Positions 1,095 to 59,137 of a stretch of 64,000 nucleotides of DNA are shown here, piece by piece. The notes under the pieces were generated by a model that worked only from the letters and a program-made list of their open reading frames with translations, had not been told where the DNA came from and made no database searches. The stretch lies in contig NZ_LMNS01000006.1 of assembly GCF_001423405.1 (NCBI RefSeq), positions 32,661-96,660 of the forward strand, read 5' to 3'. Both the position numbers and the translations under genes were made by a program. The DNA comes from Methylobacterium sp. Leaf123 (GTDB lineage Bacteria; Pseudomonadota; Alphaproteobacteria; Rhizobiales; Beijerinckiaceae). How positions within the stretch are numbered: the stretch's first letter is position 1; each line of letters opens with the position of its first letter.

Positions 1095-1988
1095 TCAGGC
1101 AGCTTCGCCGGCCGGTCCGCCGCGCCGGGCCATGATGCCGCGGCCCGGATCGTAGGCGATCACGGCGAGGGTGAAGAACAGGAGGCCGGTGCCGACCACG
1201 ACGGCGCAGGCGACCGGCTCGAAGCGCCCGTAGAGAGCGAAACGCACCAATTCGACCGCGTGGGTGAACGGATTGGCCTGGCAGATGAGATAGAGCCACT
1301 CGCTCGATGCCCGAACCTGCCAGAGCGGATATAGGGCAGAAGAGGCAAAGAACATCGGGAAGATCACGAAATTCATGACGCTCGCGAAGTTCTCAAGTTG
1401 CCGCACCAGCGACGACAGGAACAGGCCGATCGCCCCGAGCATCAAACCTGAGGCCAGGAAGGCCGGCAGGGCGGCGAGATAGCCGATGGGCGGAATGCCG
1501 GTCTCCCAGAACCACGCGATGGCCAGGAAGGCGTAGGCCTGGACGATGGAGACGCTCACGCCCGCGATCAGTTTGGCCAGCAGCAGCGACCAGCGCGGAT
1601 AGGGCGAGGTCAGCAGCACCTTCATCGAGCCGACCTCGCGGTCGTAGACCATCGAGAGCGAGGACTGCATGCCGTTGAAGAGCTGGATCATCACCGCGAG
1701 CCCCGGCACCACATAGGCCTCGTAGAGCACGTAGGTCTCGTAAGGCGGCGTGATCGAGGTGCCGAGCGTGTTGCGGAAACCCGCCGCGAAGATGAACAGC
1801 CAGACCAGCGGGCGCACCATCGCCGAGAAGAACCGCTCCTTCTGGTGGAAGAAGCGCAGCAGCTCGCGGCGCACGATGCCCCCGAGCGCGATGAGGTAGC
1901 CGACCGCATCGAGCCGGCCCGCATGCGGCACGGTCTTCGCGCCGTCCTCGGCATGGGCAGCGGCGGCGGGGTTCGAAGGAGAACTCAT
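1095..1988 (-). CDS. ABC-2 type permease, PQQ-dependent alcohol dehydrogenase system
   Basis: A 297-residue inner-membrane protein with about six hydrophobic segments after a cytoplasmic N-terminus of some 40 residues. It has the ABC-2 family layout, including the conserved region near the MYDREVGSMK stretch that follows the first extracellular loop. ABC-2 permeases usually export substrates or remodel membranes. This one fits the subfamily found beside PQQ alcohol dehydrogenases. The start overlaps the stop of the ATPase gene (ATGA), so the two are translationally coupled. The substrate is unknown. Confidence 0.88.
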   Translation of the reverse strand: MSSPSNPAAAAHAEDGAKTVPHAGRLDAVGYLIALGGIVRRELLRFFHQKERFFSAMVRPLVWLFIFAAGFRNTLGTSITPPYETYVLYEAYVVPGLAVMIQLFNGMQSSLSMVYDREVGSMKVLLTSPYPRWSLLLAKLIAGVSVSIVQAYAFLAIAWFWETGIPPIGYLAALPAFLASGLMLGAIGLFLSSLVRQLENFASVMNFVIFPMFFASSALYPLWQVRASSEWLYLICQANPFTHAVELVRFALYGRFEPVACAVVVGTGLLFFTLAVIAYDPGRGIMARRGGPAGEAA

Positions 1989-2734
1989 GCGGCGGACTTC
2001 ACGGCTCTCTTGTCGGGTTCGGCGACGAGGCGGCGGAAGGCGGCCTCCAGCGTCTCACCGGGCCCGCCGATCTCCCCGGCAAGGCCGCGGGCGACGATGC
2101 GGCCCTTGTGCAGGACCACGGCGTCGTCCTCGGGCGAAATCTCCTCGAAGATGTGGGTCGCCCACAGCACCGAGAGCCCCTCCTCCCGCACCAGGGCGCG
2201 GACGATGGCGACGATGTCGGCGCGCGATTCGAGGTCGAGCCCGACGGTGGGCTCGTCGAGCAACAGCAAGCGCGGCGCGTGGATCAGCGAGCGGGCGATC
2301 TCGATGCGCCGCGACTGGCCTCCGGACAGGGTGCGGATCTTGTCGTCGCGCCGCTCGGCGAGGCCGACGCGGGCGAGCAAGGTCTCGATGCGCGCACGCG
2401 CGGCCACCCGGCCGATGCCGTGCAGGCTGGCGTGGTAATGCAGGTTCTGCGCGACGGTGAGGTCGGTATCCAGCGTCCGCGCCTGGAACACCACGCCGAG
2501 GCCCGCGAGCGCCCGCGACGGCTCGCGGTCCAGGGGATGGCCGAGGATCGCGACCCGGCCCTCCTGATTGTTGTAGAGCCGGGTGATCACCGAGAACAAC
2601 GTGGTCTTGCCCGCACCGTTGGGCCCGAGCAGCGCCATGAAATGCCCGCGCTCGACCGTGATCGACACGCCTTCGAGCGCCGCGCGCTGGCCGAAGCGGT
2701 GGCTAACGCCGGTGACCTCGAGTGCCGCGCTCAT
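1985..2734 (-). CDS. ABC transporter ATP-binding protein, PQQ-dependent alcohol dehydrogenase system
   Basis: A 249-residue ABC ATPase. Visible motifs are Walker A (GPNGAGKTT), the signature LSGGQSRR, and Walker B followed by the D-loop (LLLLDEPTVGLD), then an H-loop histidine in ATHIFEE. The start is the ATG at 2734 because it overlaps the stop of the upstream exported-protein gene (ATGA). An ATG 14 codons further upstream lies inside that gene. It pairs with the ABC-2 permease at 1095-1988, with which its own stop overlaps. Confidence 0.9.
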   Translation of the reverse strand: MSAALEVTGVSHRFGQRAALEGVSITVERGHFMALLGPNGAGKTTLFSVITRLYNNQEGRVAILGHPLDREPSRALAGLGVVFQARTLDTDLTVAQNLHYHASLHGIGRVAARARIETLLARVGLAERRDDKIRTLSGGQSRRIEIARSLIHAPRLLLLDEPTVGLDLESRADIVAIVRALVREEGLSVLWATHIFEEISPEDDAVVLHKGRIVARGLAGEIGGPGETLEAAFRRLVAEPDKRAVKSAA

Positions 2735-3138
2735 TTCGGCAGCGCCCGCTTGGCGTCGTCGAGCGCTTCGAGGCACTCGTCGAACTCGCCCTCCCCCTGC
2801 TCGCGCTCGGCGATCTTCAGCGCGCGGGTGAGTTTCTGCGGGACGGACTCGGCCGCCAGTTTTTCGACACGCGCCTTCACGGCGGCGATGCCTTCGGCGC
2901 AGGCGGCCTTGTCGTCGGCGCGCACGGGCGTCACCAGAAGGGTAAGGGCTAAAGCAGCCGCAACGAAAACCCCTCCCCCCTCTGCGGGGGAGGGTGCCTC
3001 GCGGATGCGAGGCGGGAGAGGGGTCGGCTCAGGTCTTTCCGGAAGCGTCGTTCCCCTCACCCGACCCGCTGCGCGGGCCACCCTCTCCCGCAGAGGGGAG
3101 AGGGGTAAAATCGCGTGCAAGAGGAAGCCGCTGCGCAT
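2731..3138 (-). CDS. Small exported protein with a repeat element inside its signal peptide
   Basis: The predicted product is about 135 residues. The mature part (after VRA, about 58 residues) is charged, Glu/Lys-rich and probably helical. The family is unknown to me. Its N-terminus is odd: a short basic start (MRSGFLLHA), then about 47 residues encoded by a GC-rich dispersed repeat (2971-3106), then a hydrophobic core and cleavage site. No ATG, GTG or TTG lies between the repeat and the hydrophobic core, so a working signal sequence needs either translation through the repeat or an unusual start. It lies between the cupredoxin-like gene and the ATPase gene and overlaps the latter by ATGA. 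The upstream gene's stop is only 8 bp before this start. Confidence 0.65.
   Translation of the reverse strand: MRSGFLLHAILPLSPLRERVARAAGRVRGTTLPERPEPTPLPPRIREAPSPAEGGGVFVAAALALTLLVTPVRADDKAACAEGIAAVKARVEKLAAESVPQKLTRALKIAEREQGEGEFDECLEALDDAKRALPK
2971..3106. repeat. GC-rich dispersed repeat, family 1, copy 1 (within a coding region)
   Basis: A near-palindromic element of about 136 bp with G/C-rich arms (CCCTCCCCCCTCTGCGGGGG at one end, GGGGAGAGGGG at the other). It is clearly the same element as those at 11622-11759 (opposite orientation) and 17384-17519 (same orientation). The centre carries a conserved TTCCGGAAGCG-type block. It is read in frame within the gene at 2731-3138. Confidence 0.85.
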
Positions 3139-3146
3139 GATCAAGC

Positions 3147-3581
3147 TCACTTCACCGTAATCGTGCCGGCCATGCCCTTCTCTTCAAGCCCTTGCGCATA
3201 CCATTTGTAGGCGCCCGGCTTGATGGCGACGAATTCGATGGCGATCTCGCCGGGATCGTCGAATTCGAGATGGTCGGGCGGGCCGCCGCCGTGGATCTCC
3301 TTGTGCTCGATCACGATCTGGTTGAACCAGATGTAGCGGAAGAACTCGGGGGCGTAGAATTTGTACTCCTGCCGCCCCTTGGCGACGATGCGCAGGCGAT
3401 AGGCCTTGCCGGCTTCCAGCTCGATATCCTTGTTCTCGACCACGAAGTCGTTGCCCTCCTCGTTGCCGAGCACGAGGTCGGGCAGGTTCTGCCGCTTCTT
3501 GGTGAGGTCGAGGGCACCGGCCGGGGCGGCGGCCAGCATCAGGGCCGCGGCGGCGAGGCCGAGGCGCGTGGTCCATCTCAT
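3147..3581 (-). CDS. Periplasmic cupredoxin-like protein
   Basis: A 144-residue exported protein with a signal peptide of about 23 residues ending near AGA. The mature part is a small beta-rich domain with the look of the cupredoxin-like fold: a C-terminal stretch ending in PGAYKWYAQG and a closing strand AGTITVK. It has no cysteine, so the usual type 1 copper Cys ligand is missing. His and Met residues are present but do not form the classical set. The start at 3581 is chosen because upstream in-frame codons belong to the 46-bp repeat at 3608-3653. It lies between a beta-propeller gene and a small exported-protein gene in the ABC operon. A possible role is in the periplasmic electron-transfer environment of PQQ dehydrogenases; this is inference. 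Confidence 0.8.
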   Translation of the reverse strand: MRWTTRLGLAAAALMLAAAPAGALDLTKKRQNLPDLVLGNEEGNDFVVENKDIELEAGKAYRLRIVAKGRQEYKFYAPEFFRYIWFNQIVIEHKEIHGGGPPDHLEFDDPGEIAIEFVAIKPGAYKWYAQGLEEKGMAGTITVK

Positions 3582-3607
3582 GTCGCTTCCTCCGGTTTCT
3601 TGTTTTT

Positions 3608-3653
3608 GCATCGCCCTTTTCCGAAAGCCGGCAACCACCTTTCGGGACGACGC
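3608..3653. repeat. 46-bp imperfect palindrome, family 2, copy 1
   Basis: One of five 46-bp copies in the window (also 34294, 43002, 47654, 59064). The shared core is TTTCCGAAAGCCGG, two to three variable bases, then a CC-CTTTCGG arm, flanked by GCATC and GATGC-like ends. It ends 27 bp upstream of the start of the cupredoxin-like gene. Confidence 0.9.
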
Positions 3654-3672
3654 CTTAGCCGGCGAACTGAAC

Positions 3673-11589: not shown

Positions 11590-12690
11590 ATGCGCTGCTC
11601 ACTTCGGCTCACAGGCCGGCTCCTCCCTCTCCCCTTCGCGGGAGAGGGTGGCCCCCGAAGGGGGTCGGGTGAGGGGCTGGCTCCGCATTGTCCGGAAGCG
11701 ACGCTCCCCTCTCCCGCCTCGCATCCGCGAGGCACCCTCCCCCGCAGAGGGGGGAGGGCATTTATAGCCCTTGCCTACCTTCTGACCGTCGGCTCGCCCG
11801 CCCAGGCGCAGGAAGCCCTGGTCACGGCGCAACTCGGCAACGCCGTCGAGATCATCGACCTCGCGTCCCAGAAAATCCTGCACTCGATCCCCGTGCCGGG
11901 GGCGCCGGCCGGCATCGCCGTCTCGCCCGACCGGAAGACGGCCTACGTCACCCGCCCGGAGGGTCACGGCGTCTCGGTGATCGATCTCGACGCGCGCAGG
12001 GTGAGGGCGAGCCTCGATTTGCCCGGCGGCCCGCTCGGCATCGGCGTCAATCCGAAATCCGGCGAGGTCTACGTCGCCGATTGGTACGGTGCGCGCGTGT
12101 TCGTGCTGCGCCCGAATGCGGCGGGCCTGACGCTGGAGGGCGAAATCGCCACCGGGAAATCCCCCTCGGGCATCGCCGTGACGCCGGACGGCGCCACGCT
12201 GCTGGTGGCCAACCGCGAATCCGACTCGGTCTCGATCATCGACGTGGCGAGCCGCCGGGAGACACGGCGCGTGTCCGTCGGCCAGCACCCGTTCGGCCTG
12301 ACCCTCTCGGCGGACGGCGCCACCGCCTACACCGCCAACGTGGTCTCGAACGATGTCTCGGCGATCGATCTCGCCGCCGGCCGCGAGACCGGCCGCGTCG
12401 CCACCGGCCAGCGGCCCTACGTGATCGCGTTCGCCGCCGGCAAAGGATTCGTGACCGACCAGTATTCCAACACCGTGACGGTGTTCGACCCCACGAGCCT
12501 GAAGACACTCACCGCCATCGATGTCGGCGATCACCCCGAGGGGATCGCCGCCACCCGCGACGGGAAGACGATCGTCGTCGCCAACTGGGGCGATAACGCC
12601 CTAAGCCTGATCGACCCGTCGAGCCTCACGGTCACCGGCACGATCGCGACCGGCGACGGGCCGCGCGCCTTCGGGGATTTCCTGCGGTAG
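11590..12690 (+). CDS. YVTN-type beta-propeller with a repeat element inside its signal peptide
   Basis: A predicted 366-residue protein. From about residue 70 it is an exported beta-propeller with roughly seven blades (repeated VSVIDL- or VSIIDVA-type strands followed by G-x-x-P-x-G). It is related to the propeller at 3673-4659. The N-terminus reads MRCSLRLT, then about 45 residues encoded by the dispersed repeat at 11622-11759, then a hydrophobic core (IALAYLLTVG) and a cleavage site near AQA. No usual start codon exists between the repeat and the core. A TTG at 11569 is an alternative start 5 bp after the SRPBCC gene. It may work with the two MxaD-like proteins in the periplasm. Confidence 0.75.
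   Translation: MRCSLRLTGRLLPLPFAGEGGPRRGSGEGLAPHCPEATLPSPASHPRGTLPRRGGRAFIALAYLLTVGSPAQAQEALVTAQLGNAVEIIDLASQKILHSIPVPGAPAGIAVSPDRKTAYVTRPEGHGVSVIDLDARRVRASLDLPGGPLGIGVNPKSGEVYVADWYGARVFVLRPNAAGLTLEGEIATGKSPSGIAVTPDGATLLVANRESDSVSIIDVASRRETRRVSVGQHPFGLTLSADGATAYTANVVSNDVSAIDLAAGRETGRVATGQRPYVIAFAAGKGFVTDQYSNTVTVFDPTSLKTLTAIDVGDHPEGIAATRDGKTIVVANWGDNALSLIDPSSLTVTGTIATGDGPRAFGDFLR
11622..11759. repeat. GC-rich dispersed repeat, family 1, copy 2 (within a coding region)
   Basis: About 138 bp, inverted relative to the copies at 2971 and 17384. It shares the GCCTCGCATCCGCGAGGCACC arm and the centre TCCGGAAGCGACGCTCCCCT. Relative to the direction of its host gene it has the same orientation as copy 1, but it is read in a different frame, so the element is open in at least two frames. 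Confidence 0.85.
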
Positions 12691-15580: not shown

Positions 15581-16450
15581 TCAGAAGGCCTCGCCGCGGG
15601 CGGAGAGGAGGGCGTCGAGGAACAAGGTCGCGACGGTGAAGTCGGCGCTCGTGCCAGGGTTGAGGCCGGACTCCTTCAGCGCGCGGTCATAGGCGAGGAG
15701 TGGTTCGACCGGGGCCGCGGCGAGGTCGAGGCCCGCCAGGGACGCCTGCGCCTGCGCCCGCACCGCCTCGGCCCGCTCGGGGCCGTGCTTGCGGGCGATG
15801 TGACTGTCCGGCACGGCGGTGAGATAGGCGAGATGGACTGCCGTCGTGGTCCAGGGCGGGACGAGCCCGCGCGCACGGGCGCCAGCGAGCGCCGGCAGGC
15901 CGATCGCGAAGAGGTCGCGAAACCCGTCCGTGTAGGCGCGGGCGATGCGATCGCGCGGGGCGGCCTCCGCCATCGCCGTGAGCAGCGGCGGGACCGGTCC
16001 GTCATCGGCCTGGGATACGTCGTGGCGCTCGGCCCGGCCGAGGCCGCCGGGATTGGCCCGGCGGATCGCCGCGAACACGTCGCGGGCATCGGAGGCATCG
16101 AACCCCGCCAGCACGGCGTTCAGGGCCTCGGCCAGCGGGCCGGGCTGTTCCGCGGCGCGAGCCAGCGGCGCGCAGAGAAGCAGGATGCCGAGATTGGTGT
16201 TCTGCCCGACGGCCGCGAAGGTCGCCTCGACCCCACCCCGCACCCGCTGCCCGACGCGCGCGCCCGCGGCGGCGAGCGGCGGCGCCGATACGTCGGCGCT
16301 GGTAACGAAATCGGCCACGACCATGCGGTGGCCGGGGGCGTAGCCGTGGACGTTGCCGGGTTTCAGCGCGTCGAGTTCGGCGAGGCAGGCGGCCCGGTAG
16401 AGGTCGGCCACCGTCGCCGCAGGCAGGCCGCCGGGCGCCGTCCCGGTCAT
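15581..16450 (-). CDS. orf7: CitG-like (triphosphoribosyl-dephospho-CoA synthase family) protein of H4MPT synthesis, Orf7-type
   Basis: A 289-residue protein of the CitG/MdcB family. Family features are visible: the early ELDALKPGNVHGYAPGHRM segment with the conserved K-PGNV motif, and the Gly/Asn-rich GQNTNLGILLLCAPLA block near residue 90. Classical CitG makes the prosthetic group of citrate lyase, but this version occurs in the H4MPT cluster. In M. extorquens the gene between fae and the ATP-grasp gene is called orf7 and, as I recall, is needed for H4MPT synthesis. The start at 16450 overlaps the stop of orf5 (ATGA). The name is from memory of gene order. Confidence 0.8.
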   Translation of the reverse strand: MTGTAPGGLPAATVADLYRAACLAELDALKPGNVHGYAPGHRMVVADFVTSADVSAPPLAAAGARVGQRVRGGVEATFAAVGQNTNLGILLLCAPLARAAEQPGPLAEALNAVLAGFDASDARDVFAAIRRANPGGLGRAERHDVSQADDGPVPPLLTAMAEAAPRDRIARAYTDGFRDLFAIGLPALAGARARGLVPPWTTTAVHLAYLTAVPDSHIARKHGPERAEAVRAQAQASLAGLDLAAAPVEPLLAYDRALKESGLNPGTSADFTVATLFLDALLSARGEAF

Positions 16451-17361
16451 CCGAGCGCCGAGACCAGCCGCGGCGGGCGGGCGGCGCGCACCGCGTTGAG
16501 GAAGCCGCGCGCCACCGCCCCGGCGATATCGACCTCGGTCACCTGCTGCAGACCGGACCAAGCCGGCATGGAATTGACCTCCAGCACCAGAAAGCCGCCC
16601 TCGCCGTCCTCGACGAGGTCGATGCCGGTGTAATCGACGCCGACTGCCGCGGCCGCGGCCTCGGCGAGTTCGGCGGCGCGGGCCGGCACGTCCCAGGCGA
16701 AGGGCCGGCCCCCGCGATGGACGTTGGTGATCCAGCCGTCGCCCTCGCGGATCATTCCGGCGATCGCCCGGCCCTCGCAGACGAAGACGCGGTAGTCGCG
16801 CCATAGCCCGTCGGCGCGGGCGACGTAGCGCTGAAGGTAGTAGACGCCACTCACGGCTTCTTGCGCCGGCAAATCATCGGGGCTTTCGAGGAGCATCAGC
16901 CCCTCGCCCTGCGAGCCGAACAGGGGCTTGAGCACGATCGGCTTGCCGGGCCGCGCCTCGCGGGCGACGATCTCGGCCGCCGCCTCGCGTTTCGAGACGA
17001 CGAAGGTGTCGGGCGTCGGCAATCCGGCGCGGGCGATCAGTAGCGAGGTCGCCGCCTTGTCCACCGAGCGCTCGATCGCCGACGGCCCGTTCCAGACGGT
17101 GACGCCGGAGACGACCAGGGCGTGGAGCACGCCGAGCCGCATGGTGGTGGCCTCGAATGTCCCGCCCGCGATGGTGCGCAGCAGGACGCCATCCGGCAGC
17201 CCGTCCTCGAAGCCGGGGACGCGCAGCGGTTCGCCGCCGCCAGTGACGACGGCAACGTCGGCAAGCGAGAACAGTACCGGCTCGACGCCGAAGCCGCGCA
17301 AGGCCTCCCGCAGCCGCGCCTTGTGCCAATTGCCGTTGTCGGCCGCGAGCCCGATGCGCAT
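16447..17361 (-). CDS. orf5: ATP-grasp ligase of RimK/MptN type, H4MPT biosynthesis (Orf5-type)
   Basis: A 304-residue ATP-grasp protein. The central domain has the ATP-binding stretch IVLKPLFGSQGEGLMLL and, later, the metal/ATP segment GFLVLEVNSMPAWSGLQ with the conserved EVN. The closest known relatives are glutamate ligases such as RimK and MptN, which add glutamate to tetrahydromethanopterin. It lies between orf7 and mch, with its stop overlapping the orf7 start. A glutamate-adding role in the bacterial H4MPT is likely but inferred. The ATG at 17361 directly opens the first beta-strand (MRIGLAAD). A 136-bp repeat lies between it and mch. Confidence 0.85.
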   Translation of the reverse strand: MRIGLAADNGNWHKARLREALRGFGVEPVLFSLADVAVVTGGGEPLRVPGFEDGLPDGVLLRTIAGGTFEATTMRLGVLHALVVSGVTVWNGPSAIERSVDKAATSLLIARAGLPTPDTFVVSKREAAAEIVAREARPGKPIVLKPLFGSQGEGLMLLESPDDLPAQEAVSGVYYLQRYVARADGLWRDYRVFVCEGRAIAGMIREGDGWITNVHRGGRPFAWDVPARAAELAEAAAAAVGVDYTGIDLVEDGEGGFLVLEVNSMPAWSGLQQVTEVDIAGAVARGFLNAVRAARPPRLVSALG

Positions 17362-17383
17362 GCGTTTTTCCAGTTACCTTCAA

Positions 17384-17519
17384 CCCTCCCCCCTCCGCGG
17401 GGGAGGGTGCCCTGCGGATGCAGGGTGGGAGAGGGGCCGGCTCCGAACTCCCCGGAAGCGGCGCTCCCCTCACCCGACCCGCTTCGCGGGCCACCCCCTC
17501 CCGCTTCAGGGGAGAGGGA
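17384..17519. repeat. GC-rich dispersed repeat, family 1, copy 3 (intergenic)
   Basis: About 136 bp between orf5 and mch, in the same orientation as the copy at 2971. Ends are CCCTCCCCCCTCCGCGGGGG and CCGCTTCAGGGGAGAGGG, and the centre holds CCGGAAGCGGCGCTCCCCT. This copy is wholly non-coding and shows the element independent of any reading frame. Confidence 0.85.
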
Positions 17520-34280: not shown

Positions 34281-34293
34281 GCGTCTTGTTTTT

Positions 34294-34339
34294 GCATCGT
34301 CTTTTTCCGAAAGCCGGAATCCGCCTTTCGGAACGATGC
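34294..34339. repeat. 46-bp imperfect palindrome, family 2, copy 2
   Basis: Same length and core as the other copies (TTTTTCCGAAAGCCGG, then CGCCTTTCGG, ends GCATC and GATGC). It ends 39 bp upstream of the folP start. Confidence 0.9.
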
Positions 34340-34378
34340 TCCCGGCCGCCAAACCCGGCCCGACAGCTTTGATCCGCG

Positions 34379-42824: not shown

Positions 42825-43001
42825 GAATTATCGGTCAGGCCGTTCCGTCCCCGGCGGGGGCGGACGGGTTCTGTTGAATTTTTTAATAGGGAATCGCTCC
42901 CGCCCCGTCCACAGCCGGCCCCGGCGTTTCCGCTGCGGCATGCGCGCGTCCGATCGCTGCGATCGCCGCTTGCGCATGCGCCGGTCCCGAAGCAGGTTTT
43001 C

Positions 43002-43047
43002 GCATCATCTTTTTCCGAAAGCCGGCGACCACCTTTCGGGATGATGC
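43002..43047. repeat. 46-bp imperfect palindrome, family 2, copy 3
   Basis: The best palindrome of the family: outer arms GCATCATC and GATGATGC, inner core TTTTTCCGAAAGCCGG and ACCACCTTTCGG. It ends 22 bp upstream of the start of the pterin dehydratase gene. Confidence 0.92.
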
Positions 43048-43069
43048 TCTATTCGACGGGAGGGTAACG

Positions 43070-47577: not shown

Positions 47578-47653
47578 GGGGAATCCTCCGTTCTGTGAGA
47601 CCGTCTTGTCGTGCGCGCGGTCACGCCTGGGAGACGCATGCCGCACTTGAAAA

Positions 47654-47699
47654 GCATCGCCCTTTTCCGAAAGCCGGCGGCCACCTTTCGGGACGATGT
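47654..47699. repeat. 46-bp imperfect palindrome, family 2, copy 4
   Basis: Same length and core as the others (CTTTTCCGAAAGCCGG / CCACCTTTCGG). It lies between ppc and mclA, 76 bp upstream of the mclA start. Confidence 0.9.
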
Positions 47700-47764
47700 T
47701 CTATCTCGCGCGCCCGAGCCGGCCGTCCAGCCGGGCCCGGAACACGTCGCCGAGATTGTATGCA

Positions 47765-53019: not shown

Positions 53020-53122
53020 CTCATCCTGAGGTGCCCGCGTGAGCGGGCCTCGAAGGATCGTCCAGAAATCGCGCGGGTCCTGGAGGATCCTTCGAGGCCG
53101 CTTCGCGGCACCTCAGGATGAG
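53020..53122. repeat. About 104-bp inverted repeat, family 3, copy 1
   Basis: Ends CTCATCCTGAGGTGC and GCACCTCAGGATGAG are perfect complements. The inner arms GGCCTCGAAGGATC / GATCCTTCGAGGCC also pair, around a centre with CGCGCGGGTCCTGGAGG. The second copy is at 54998-55102. Repeats of this sequence are widespread in Rhizobiales genomes. Confidence 0.9.
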
Positions 53123-53172
53123 GGGCAGGGTTGGACGGCGGACATCCGCTCTCGGTCCTTGCGCTCCCTTGT

Positions 53173-54997: not shown

Positions 54998-55102
54998 CTC
55001 ATCCTGAGGTGCCGGAGCGAAGCGGAGGCCTCGAAGGGTGCTCCAGGGATCGCGCGGGTCCTGGAGGCTCCTTCGAGGCCGCTTCGCGGCACCTCAGGAT
55101 GA
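54998..55102. repeat. About 104-bp inverted repeat, family 3, copy 2
   Basis: Same ends (CTCATCCTGAGGTGC / GCACCTCAGGATGAG) and centre (TCGCGCGGGTCCTGGAGG) as the copy at 53020. It lies between hprA and mtdA within the serine-cycle array. Confidence 0.9.
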
Positions 55103-55128
55103 GGGTGAGAGCGGGATACCCGTAGAGG

Positions 55129-59012: not shown

Positions 59013-59063
59013 GGCGCCACCCTGGATATCGGATCCAGGACGGCGCTCCGGGCTGTTGTTTTC

Positions 59064-59109
59064 GCATCATCGTTTCCCGAAAGCCGGCGGCCAGCTTTCG
59101 GGGTGATGC
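59064..59109. repeat. 46-bp imperfect palindrome, family 2, copy 5
   Basis: Same length and core as the others (GTTTCCCGAAAGCCGG / CCAGCTTTCGG, ends GCATCATC and GTGATGC). It ends 28 bp upstream of the start of the glycosyltransferase gene. Confidence 0.9.
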
Positions 59110-59137
59110 CCGCCCCTCACGGACAGACGAGACCCGC

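What the first reader, a model, noticed from the sequence alone, without database searches (positions are those of the whole stretch)
2971..3106. Dispersed repeat read in frame inside a signal peptide (first case)
The exported protein at 2731-3138 has a basic start of about nine residues, then about 47 codons made by a 136-bp palindromic repeat, then the hydrophobic core and cleavage site. No usual start codon lies between the repeat and the core, so export needs translation through the repeat. This recalls Rickettsia palindromic elements, which sit inside proteins, but here the site is the junction between the n- and h-regions of a signal peptide, a place tolerant of extra residues. The repeat is 0 modulo 3 in effect and has no stop in this frame.
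Basis: partly seen in the sequence, partly recalled or inferred. Interest (0 to 1): 0.72.

Follow-up and report, generated by a model that had tools for sequence, protein, structure and literature searches.

The report
Mobile repeat translated inside signal peptides
In a Methylobacterium-type genome a 136-base dispersed palindromic repeat lies in frame inside the predicted export signal of a small protein; it is likely translated and then cut off with that signal, and the same element also sits in frame near the start of other predicted exported or membrane-anchored proteins in the genus.

Summary
A 136-bp palindromic element (at least 27 places in this genome) lies in frame between the start and the hydrophobic core of the predicted signal peptide of the gene at 2731-3138(-), with no usable start codon after it. 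The gene is found in 109 of 111 genus genomes; 18 of 109 N-terminal regions match the element (0 of 545 shuffles), and a close relative (L013) shows the empty site. Presence needs 10 gains or losses on the gene tree, all on well-supported branches. In 16 of 17 evaluable carriers the ATG at the gene junction is in frame and open through the element. In four related species the leader keeps one length while its residues drift: frame is kept, sequence is not. The same genome has the element in frame in at least six other genes: at the start/hydrophobic junction of a YVTN beta-propeller (window 11590-12690) and of PBP1C, at the N-terminus of a UdgX-type protein, and inside an ATP-dependent DNA ligase, CobN and a DEXH helicase; relatives reuse the sites that I checked. 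It works like Rickettsia palindromic elements, in an element with no shown relation to them. Translation, export and cleavage were not measured.

The parts
2731..3138 (-). Gene of a small predicted exported protein (135 aa plus stop) in a PQQ-dependent alcohol dehydrogenase type cluster; no Pfam or NCBIfam family
   Evidence: neighbours TIGR03864, TIGR03866, TIGR03863
3107..3138 (-). Start codon (3136-3138) and short n-region MRSGFLLHAI
   Evidence: nearly the same DNA in repeat-free L013
2971..3106 (-). 136-bp palindromic dispersed element, read in frame as about 45 codons of the leader
2917..2970 (-). Hydrophobic core and predicted cleavage site VFVAAALALTLLVTPVRA
   Evidence: sequence; core strength compared
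2734..2916 (-). Predicted mature protein from DDK
   Evidence: one match in each of 109 of 111 genus genomes
3147..3581 (-). Upstream cupredoxin-like gene (weak family matches, below cut-offs); its stop lies 8 nt before the start of the gene
11590..12690 (+). YVTN beta-propeller gene with the same kind of element in its predicted signal peptide
   Evidence: TIGR02276 173.8 bits
11625..11758 (+). Element copy read in frame between MRCSLRLTGRL and FIALAYLLTVGSPAQAQ

Best explanation
A dispersed 136-bp palindromic element lies in frame between the start and the hydrophobic core of a predicted signal peptide, is likely translated as a long n-region, and would be removed with the signal peptide, leaving the mature protein unchanged. 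Shown: the element, its frame, orthologues without it, repeated change at the site, a kept frame with drifting residues, and the same element in frame in at least six other genes of this genome. Inferred: that ribosomes start at the ATG at 3136-3138 and read through the hairpin, that the Sec machinery accepts the long n-region, and that signal peptidase cuts at the usual place. Why there (inferred): the start adjoins the stop of the upstream gene, so the n-region is the only slack between the two genes, and out-of-frame insertions would be lost by selection. The element is probably neutral or slightly costly.
For: No usable start after the element. 16 of 17 evaluable carriers keep the junction ATG in frame and open, although presence changes 10 times on the tree, all 10 forced by well-supported branches. 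L097, L109, L102 and L114 have 270-nt leaders without a gap; L109 and L114 differ at 22/23/28 sites by codon position, their mature parts at 3/2/16. L108 lost 147 nt of it, in frame. Empty site in L013. The window copy is nearer to dispersed copies of its own genome (91.8%) than to same-site copies elsewhere (at most 86.7%, opposite orientation), as expected of separate insertion. Core strength is alike with and without the element (mean maximum 2.40 vs 2.47). The element is in frame in ligase TIGR04120, CobN, helicase TIGR04121, YVTN propeller, PBP1C and a UdgX-type protein, all above curated cut-offs. Database proteins P0001 (M. extorquens PA1) and P0002 carry the same 135-aa form.
Against: No proteomics, ribosome profiling or signal-peptide predictor. 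L113 is out of frame with the junction ATG by one base, though an in-frame GTG remains before the element. L010, L011 and L112 have a start after the element, and records P0005 and P0024 begin there. Flat substitution by codon position would also fit untranslated DNA. 23% of simulated neutral descendants stay stop-free, and the element is open in 94 of 132 frames of 22 copies, so openness alone is weak. The count of 0 stops in the reading frame against 29 and 7 in the others is 0 by construction, because the start was chosen inside the open frame. The 10 changes may include losses, and an exact loss restores the frame by itself.
Confidence: 0.8

Rival explanations
1. Translation starts inside the element: it brings its own GTG with a purine-rich GGGAGAGG just before it, and only the rest of the element is read as n-region.
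For: Two in-frame GTG inside the window copy. In L097, L109 and L113 an in-frame ATG, and in L102 and L114 a GTG, lie 44 codons before the cleavage site; the frameshift of L113 lies upstream of that ATG and would then be harmless.
Against: The spacing of the purine-rich run to the GTG is short (sequence). In L097, L102, L109 and L114 the junction ATG is kept in frame as well. In L083 the only in-frame GTG after the junction ATG is three codons on, before the element.
Confidence: 0.13
2. The element has a selected role there, for instance as an mRNA hairpin that tunes expression of the downstream gene, and its translation is incidental.
For: Very stable fold; repeated presence at the same site.
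Against: Most orthologues (91 of 109) have no match to it; sequence drifts in the M. mesophilicum-type clade and L108 lost most of it. No expression data.
Confidence: 0.1
3. The element is a non-coding spacer and the protein starts after it.
For: True start options after the element exist in L010, L011 and L112.
Against: None in the window gene; frame kept in 16 of 17 evaluable carriers.
Confidence: 0.04
4. It is an assembly join or a dead gene.
For: L010 is a chimera at the repeat.
Against: P0001 and P0002 (17 member sequences together) hold the same form; the mature part is conserved and the frame is kept.
Confidence: 0.03

Closest known systems
Rickettsia palindromic elements (RPE), known to me here through passages of the review PMC2229807
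   Same: A short palindromic repeat of 105-146 bp, dispersed, present in frame inside conserved protein genes as well as elsewhere, tolerated by the host protein.
   Different: No shown sequence relation; GC-rich; a free-living genus outside Rickettsiales; here some copies sit in predicted signal peptides or before signal anchors.
Yersinia RU-2/YPAL repeat in YPO1552 (PMC2759123 and PMC2229807, passages)
   Different: RU-2 supplies hydrophobic signal sequence itself; here the element is a hydrophilic insert between the start and an existing hydrophobic core, with repeat-free orthologues and repeated change at the site.
QMITE1/QMITE2 of Coxiella (PMC5896051, passages)
   Same: MITE copies overlapping annotated genes, sometimes in frame.
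   Different: The paper notes mainly gene ends and hypothetical genes; no sequence relation was tested.
REP/BIME elements (PMC12306157, PMC5082802, passages)
   Same: Dispersed palindromes with strong RNA hairpins.
   Different: REPs are 14-40 nt and seldom overlap coding regions; no Y1_Tnp gene was found in this genome.

Membership tests
Rickettsia palindromic elements | Palindromic dispersed repeat of about 105-146 bp | tested here: met
   136 bp, strong fold, at least 27 places
Rickettsia palindromic elements | In-frame insertion inside conserved protein genes | tested here: met
   this gene, ligase, CobN, helicase, YVTN, PBP1C, UdgX-type
Rickettsia palindromic elements | Sequence relation to the described RPE families | tested here: inconclusive
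   The 135-aa protein matched no NCBIfam or Pfam family; that NCBIfam holds RPE models is recalled, and no Rickettsia DNA was compared
Rickettsia palindromic elements | Found in Rickettsiales | tested here: not met
   the genome's named relatives are Methylobacterium and Methylorubrum
Rickettsia palindromic elements | Insert shown to be translated | not testable with these tools
   no proteomic or ribosome data
MITE | Inverted ends, target-site duplication, parent transposase | tested here: inconclusive
   the ends pair in the fold; duplication and parent element were not examined
REP with RAYT | Short (14-40 nt) extragenic palindrome | tested here: not met
   136 bp and in frame in genes
REP with RAYT | Y1_Tnp (RAYT-type) transposase in the genome | tested here: not met
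   no match in G000; the control rang in 5 of 14 genomes

The most novel reading that the evidence does not exclude
Methylobacterium carries a genus-wide system of protein-coding palindromic repeats outside Rickettsiales, and signal-peptide n-regions are a favoured safe harbour for them: an insert there is translated, held in frame by selection, and removed by signal peptidase, so a mobile element can live inside an exported gene without changing its mature product.
Probability: 0.5. Interest if true: 0.8.

Novelty: new variant of a known kind. Interest (0 to 1): 0.66.

Why it matters
Coding palindromic repeats are known mainly from Rickettsia and Wolbachia. Here a free-living genus with laboratory strains shows them in conserved genes, with repeat-free relatives for comparison and repeated use of the same sites. 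It offers natural leaders of up to 127 codons before the cleavage site (predicted) to test how long a Sec n-region may be, a way for selfish DNA to hide in a disposable peptide, and a warning to annotators, since some records begin the protein after the repeat.

Tried and rejected
REP/RAYT origin: no Y1_Tnp match in this genome. Known structured RNA: no Rfam match in the window at gathering scores. Codon-score gene calling round the other copies gave shadow ORFs; three ORFs that span a copy (L050, L051, L055) matched no NCBIfam family at E <= 1e-10 and are not counted as genes. Absence of stops alone as proof of translation: rejected as weak. L010 was dropped from the start test and from the final tree because its contig joins another locus at the repeat. 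L131 was left out of the start test because its upstream stop was not placed. L076 and L124 show short palindromes by eye but no panel match and are not among the 18; with them, an earlier quick tree gave 13 changes, 8 forced. G040 and G078 gave no ortholog. In the helicase count G086 was left out because its two pieces lie on different contigs.

Literature: the searches listed no paper on a coding palindromic repeat in Methylobacterium. Of the Methylobacterium genome paper PMC2680597 I saw 12 of 29 passages; they name one MITE of about 400 bp and no repeat like this one. Of PMC5082802, PMC2229807, PMC2759123, PMC5896051 and PMC12306157 I saw passages only.

Full report
What is there. The minus-strand gene at 2731-3138 reads MRSGFLLHAILPLSPLRERVARAAGRVRGTTLPERPEPTPLPPRIREAPSPAEGGGVFVAAALALTLLVTPVRADDKAACAEG.... 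It lies between a cupredoxin-like gene (weak family matches) and the ATPase of an ABC transporter of the PQQ-dependent alcohol dehydrogenase system (TIGR03864), near TIGR03866 and TIGR03863 proteins. The repeat 2971-3106 is one of at least 27 distinct places in this 5.43-Mb genome (my count, which scored 40 of 62 candidates). The gene-sense strand folds at -102.9 kcal/mol against -67.7 +/- 4.6 for shuffles.

Orthologues. The mature part has one match in each of 109 of 111 genus genomes. I read all 109 N-termini: 30 loci and 79. 18 of 109 N-terminal regions match a panel of 24 element copies of this genome, the window copy included, at E <= 1e-3; 0 of 545 mononucleotide-shuffled regions do. Some matches are remnants: 25 nt in L108 and L135. 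The other 91 have no match to this element; I did not exclude other repeats in them. The net insert is 147 nt. Among database proteins P0001 (M. extorquens PA1) and P0002 hold the element form, while P0006 and P0009, labelled M. extorquens, do not.

Repeated change at the site. On a tree of cupredoxin plus mature-gene DNA, n- and h-regions left out, element presence needs 11 changes, at least 9 forced (109 rows), or 10 changes, 10 forced, when the chimeric L010 is dropped (108 rows, 17 carriers). These may be gains or losses. Two facts speak for more than one gain: the window copy is 91.8% identical to a copy elsewhere in its own genome and at most 86.7% to a same-site copy of another species, and the copies of L001 and L004 lie in opposite orientations (246 bits minus against 77 plus; 152 plus against 66 minus). 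A 20-row clade with no element has its start further down, after a spacer of its own.

Frame. Of 17 carriers with the upstream cupredoxin stop placed, 16 have an ATG at the junction that is in frame and open through to the core; L113 lacks one base and keeps an in-frame GTG before the element. Counted from the start used, carriers have 38-127 codons before the cleavage-site Ala, L010 apart, for which a start after the element was taken. Stops in the three frames sum to 0, 29 and 7 over the 18 carriers; the 0 is by construction, since the start was chosen inside the open frame, so the real point is that the junction ATG falls inside it. In L097, L109, L102 and L114 the leader is 270 nt without a gap; L109 and L114 differ at 73 sites, 22/23/28 by codon position, while their mature parts differ at 3/2/16. 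Length and openness are kept while residues drift. L108 lost 147 nt in frame. The flat pattern would also fit untranslated DNA, and 23% of simulated neutral descendants stay stop-free; the argument rests on the frame across independent changes.

Starts. In the window gene no usable start follows the element; two GTG lie inside it. If the later one is used, about 30 element codons are still read. L010, L011 and L112 have a start after the element, and records P0005 and P0024 begin there.

Generality. I inspected 24 of the 27 places. At least 7 are in frame within genes: this one; an ATP-dependent DNA ligase (TIGR04120), CobN and a DEXH helicase (TIGR04121); a YVTN beta-propeller, MRCSLRLTGRL[element]FIALAYLLTVGSPAQAQ, at window 11590-12690; PBP1C, MSRRQP[element]RVGAVFAAVFTVVLLLAGALW; and a UdgX/TIGR03915 protein, MGKPA[element]FCGG. 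Three of the seven sit between the start and a hydrophobic segment. The other 17 were not settled one by one, so this is no full census and no test of preference.

Same sites in relatives. For PBP1C and YVTN I read the 30 best loci each (of 110 genomes searched). Upstream of the hydrophobic segment 22 of 30 and 9 of 30 match the panel, the window genome's own copy included; 16 and 7 of these matches are longer than 100 nt, the rest 19-56 nt; no shuffled control was run there, and L301 is cut by a contig end. For CobN all 25 complete split pairs listed lie in one open frame with gaps of 3-402 nt; for the helicase all 41 pairs on one contig do, gaps -30 to 231 nt (from, whose lists were cut). 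A split within one frame gives a multiple of 3 by construction; the point is that one open frame spans both pieces. Of 20 sites fetched for each, chosen among the split ones, 9 for CobN and 13 for the helicase match the panel; several others carry different repeat-like sequence at the same place.

Range. In a family sample 39 of 80 genomes, in 25 of 43 genera, have some match; only up to 10 candidates per genome were scored, and many matches outside the genus are partial.

Reading. The element likely inserts widely and is kept where an in-frame stretch does no harm: between genes, in loops, and in n-regions. In a cleaved signal peptide the insert would be discarded. Mobility, translation and cleavage are inferred. 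It works like Rickettsia palindromic elements; it is not shown to be related to them. The nearest precedent in print that I found for a signal peptide is the RU-2 repeat in YPO1552 (PMC2759123, passages).

Noticed in passing
L010 (G037) 1-1425 and 1487-3237 against window 16073-17502 and 2984-1276: The contig joins two window loci, in opposite senses, at the element: either an assembly error or an inversion of about 14 kb between two element copies. The gene would lose its upstream neighbour and could start after the element (P0005).
   Followed up: partly
window 3602-3664, 34288-34350, 42996-43058, 47648-47710, 59058-59120: Another dispersed palindromic repeat of about 63 nt, five copies at 70-81% identity to the first.
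   Followed up: no
window 53046-53135 and 55027-55116: A 90-nt direct repeat with a CTTCGAGGCCGCTTCGCGGCACCTCAGGATGAGGG core, two copies at 88%.
   Followed up: no
window 17384-17518: Third copy of the element in the window; its gene context was not settled.
   Followed up: partly
CobN loci L213-L217, L219, L220, L225-L227: Other repeat-like coding inserts (for example IPSPRTRGEGR...LSPHAGRGD and VPSPVRERGHV) occupy the same CobN site as the element does in other species.
   Followed up: partly
P0002 and P0006: Two database proteins have identical mature parts, as read by eye, but quite different signal peptides, one with and one without the element, which hints at replacement of the signal peptide by recombination.
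   Followed up: no
L084-L086, L088, L090-L092, L094-L096, L098-L101, L103-L107, L120: A 20-species clade has no element here and starts the gene after a spacer of its own, often with a GGAGG-like site before the ATG.
   Followed up: partly
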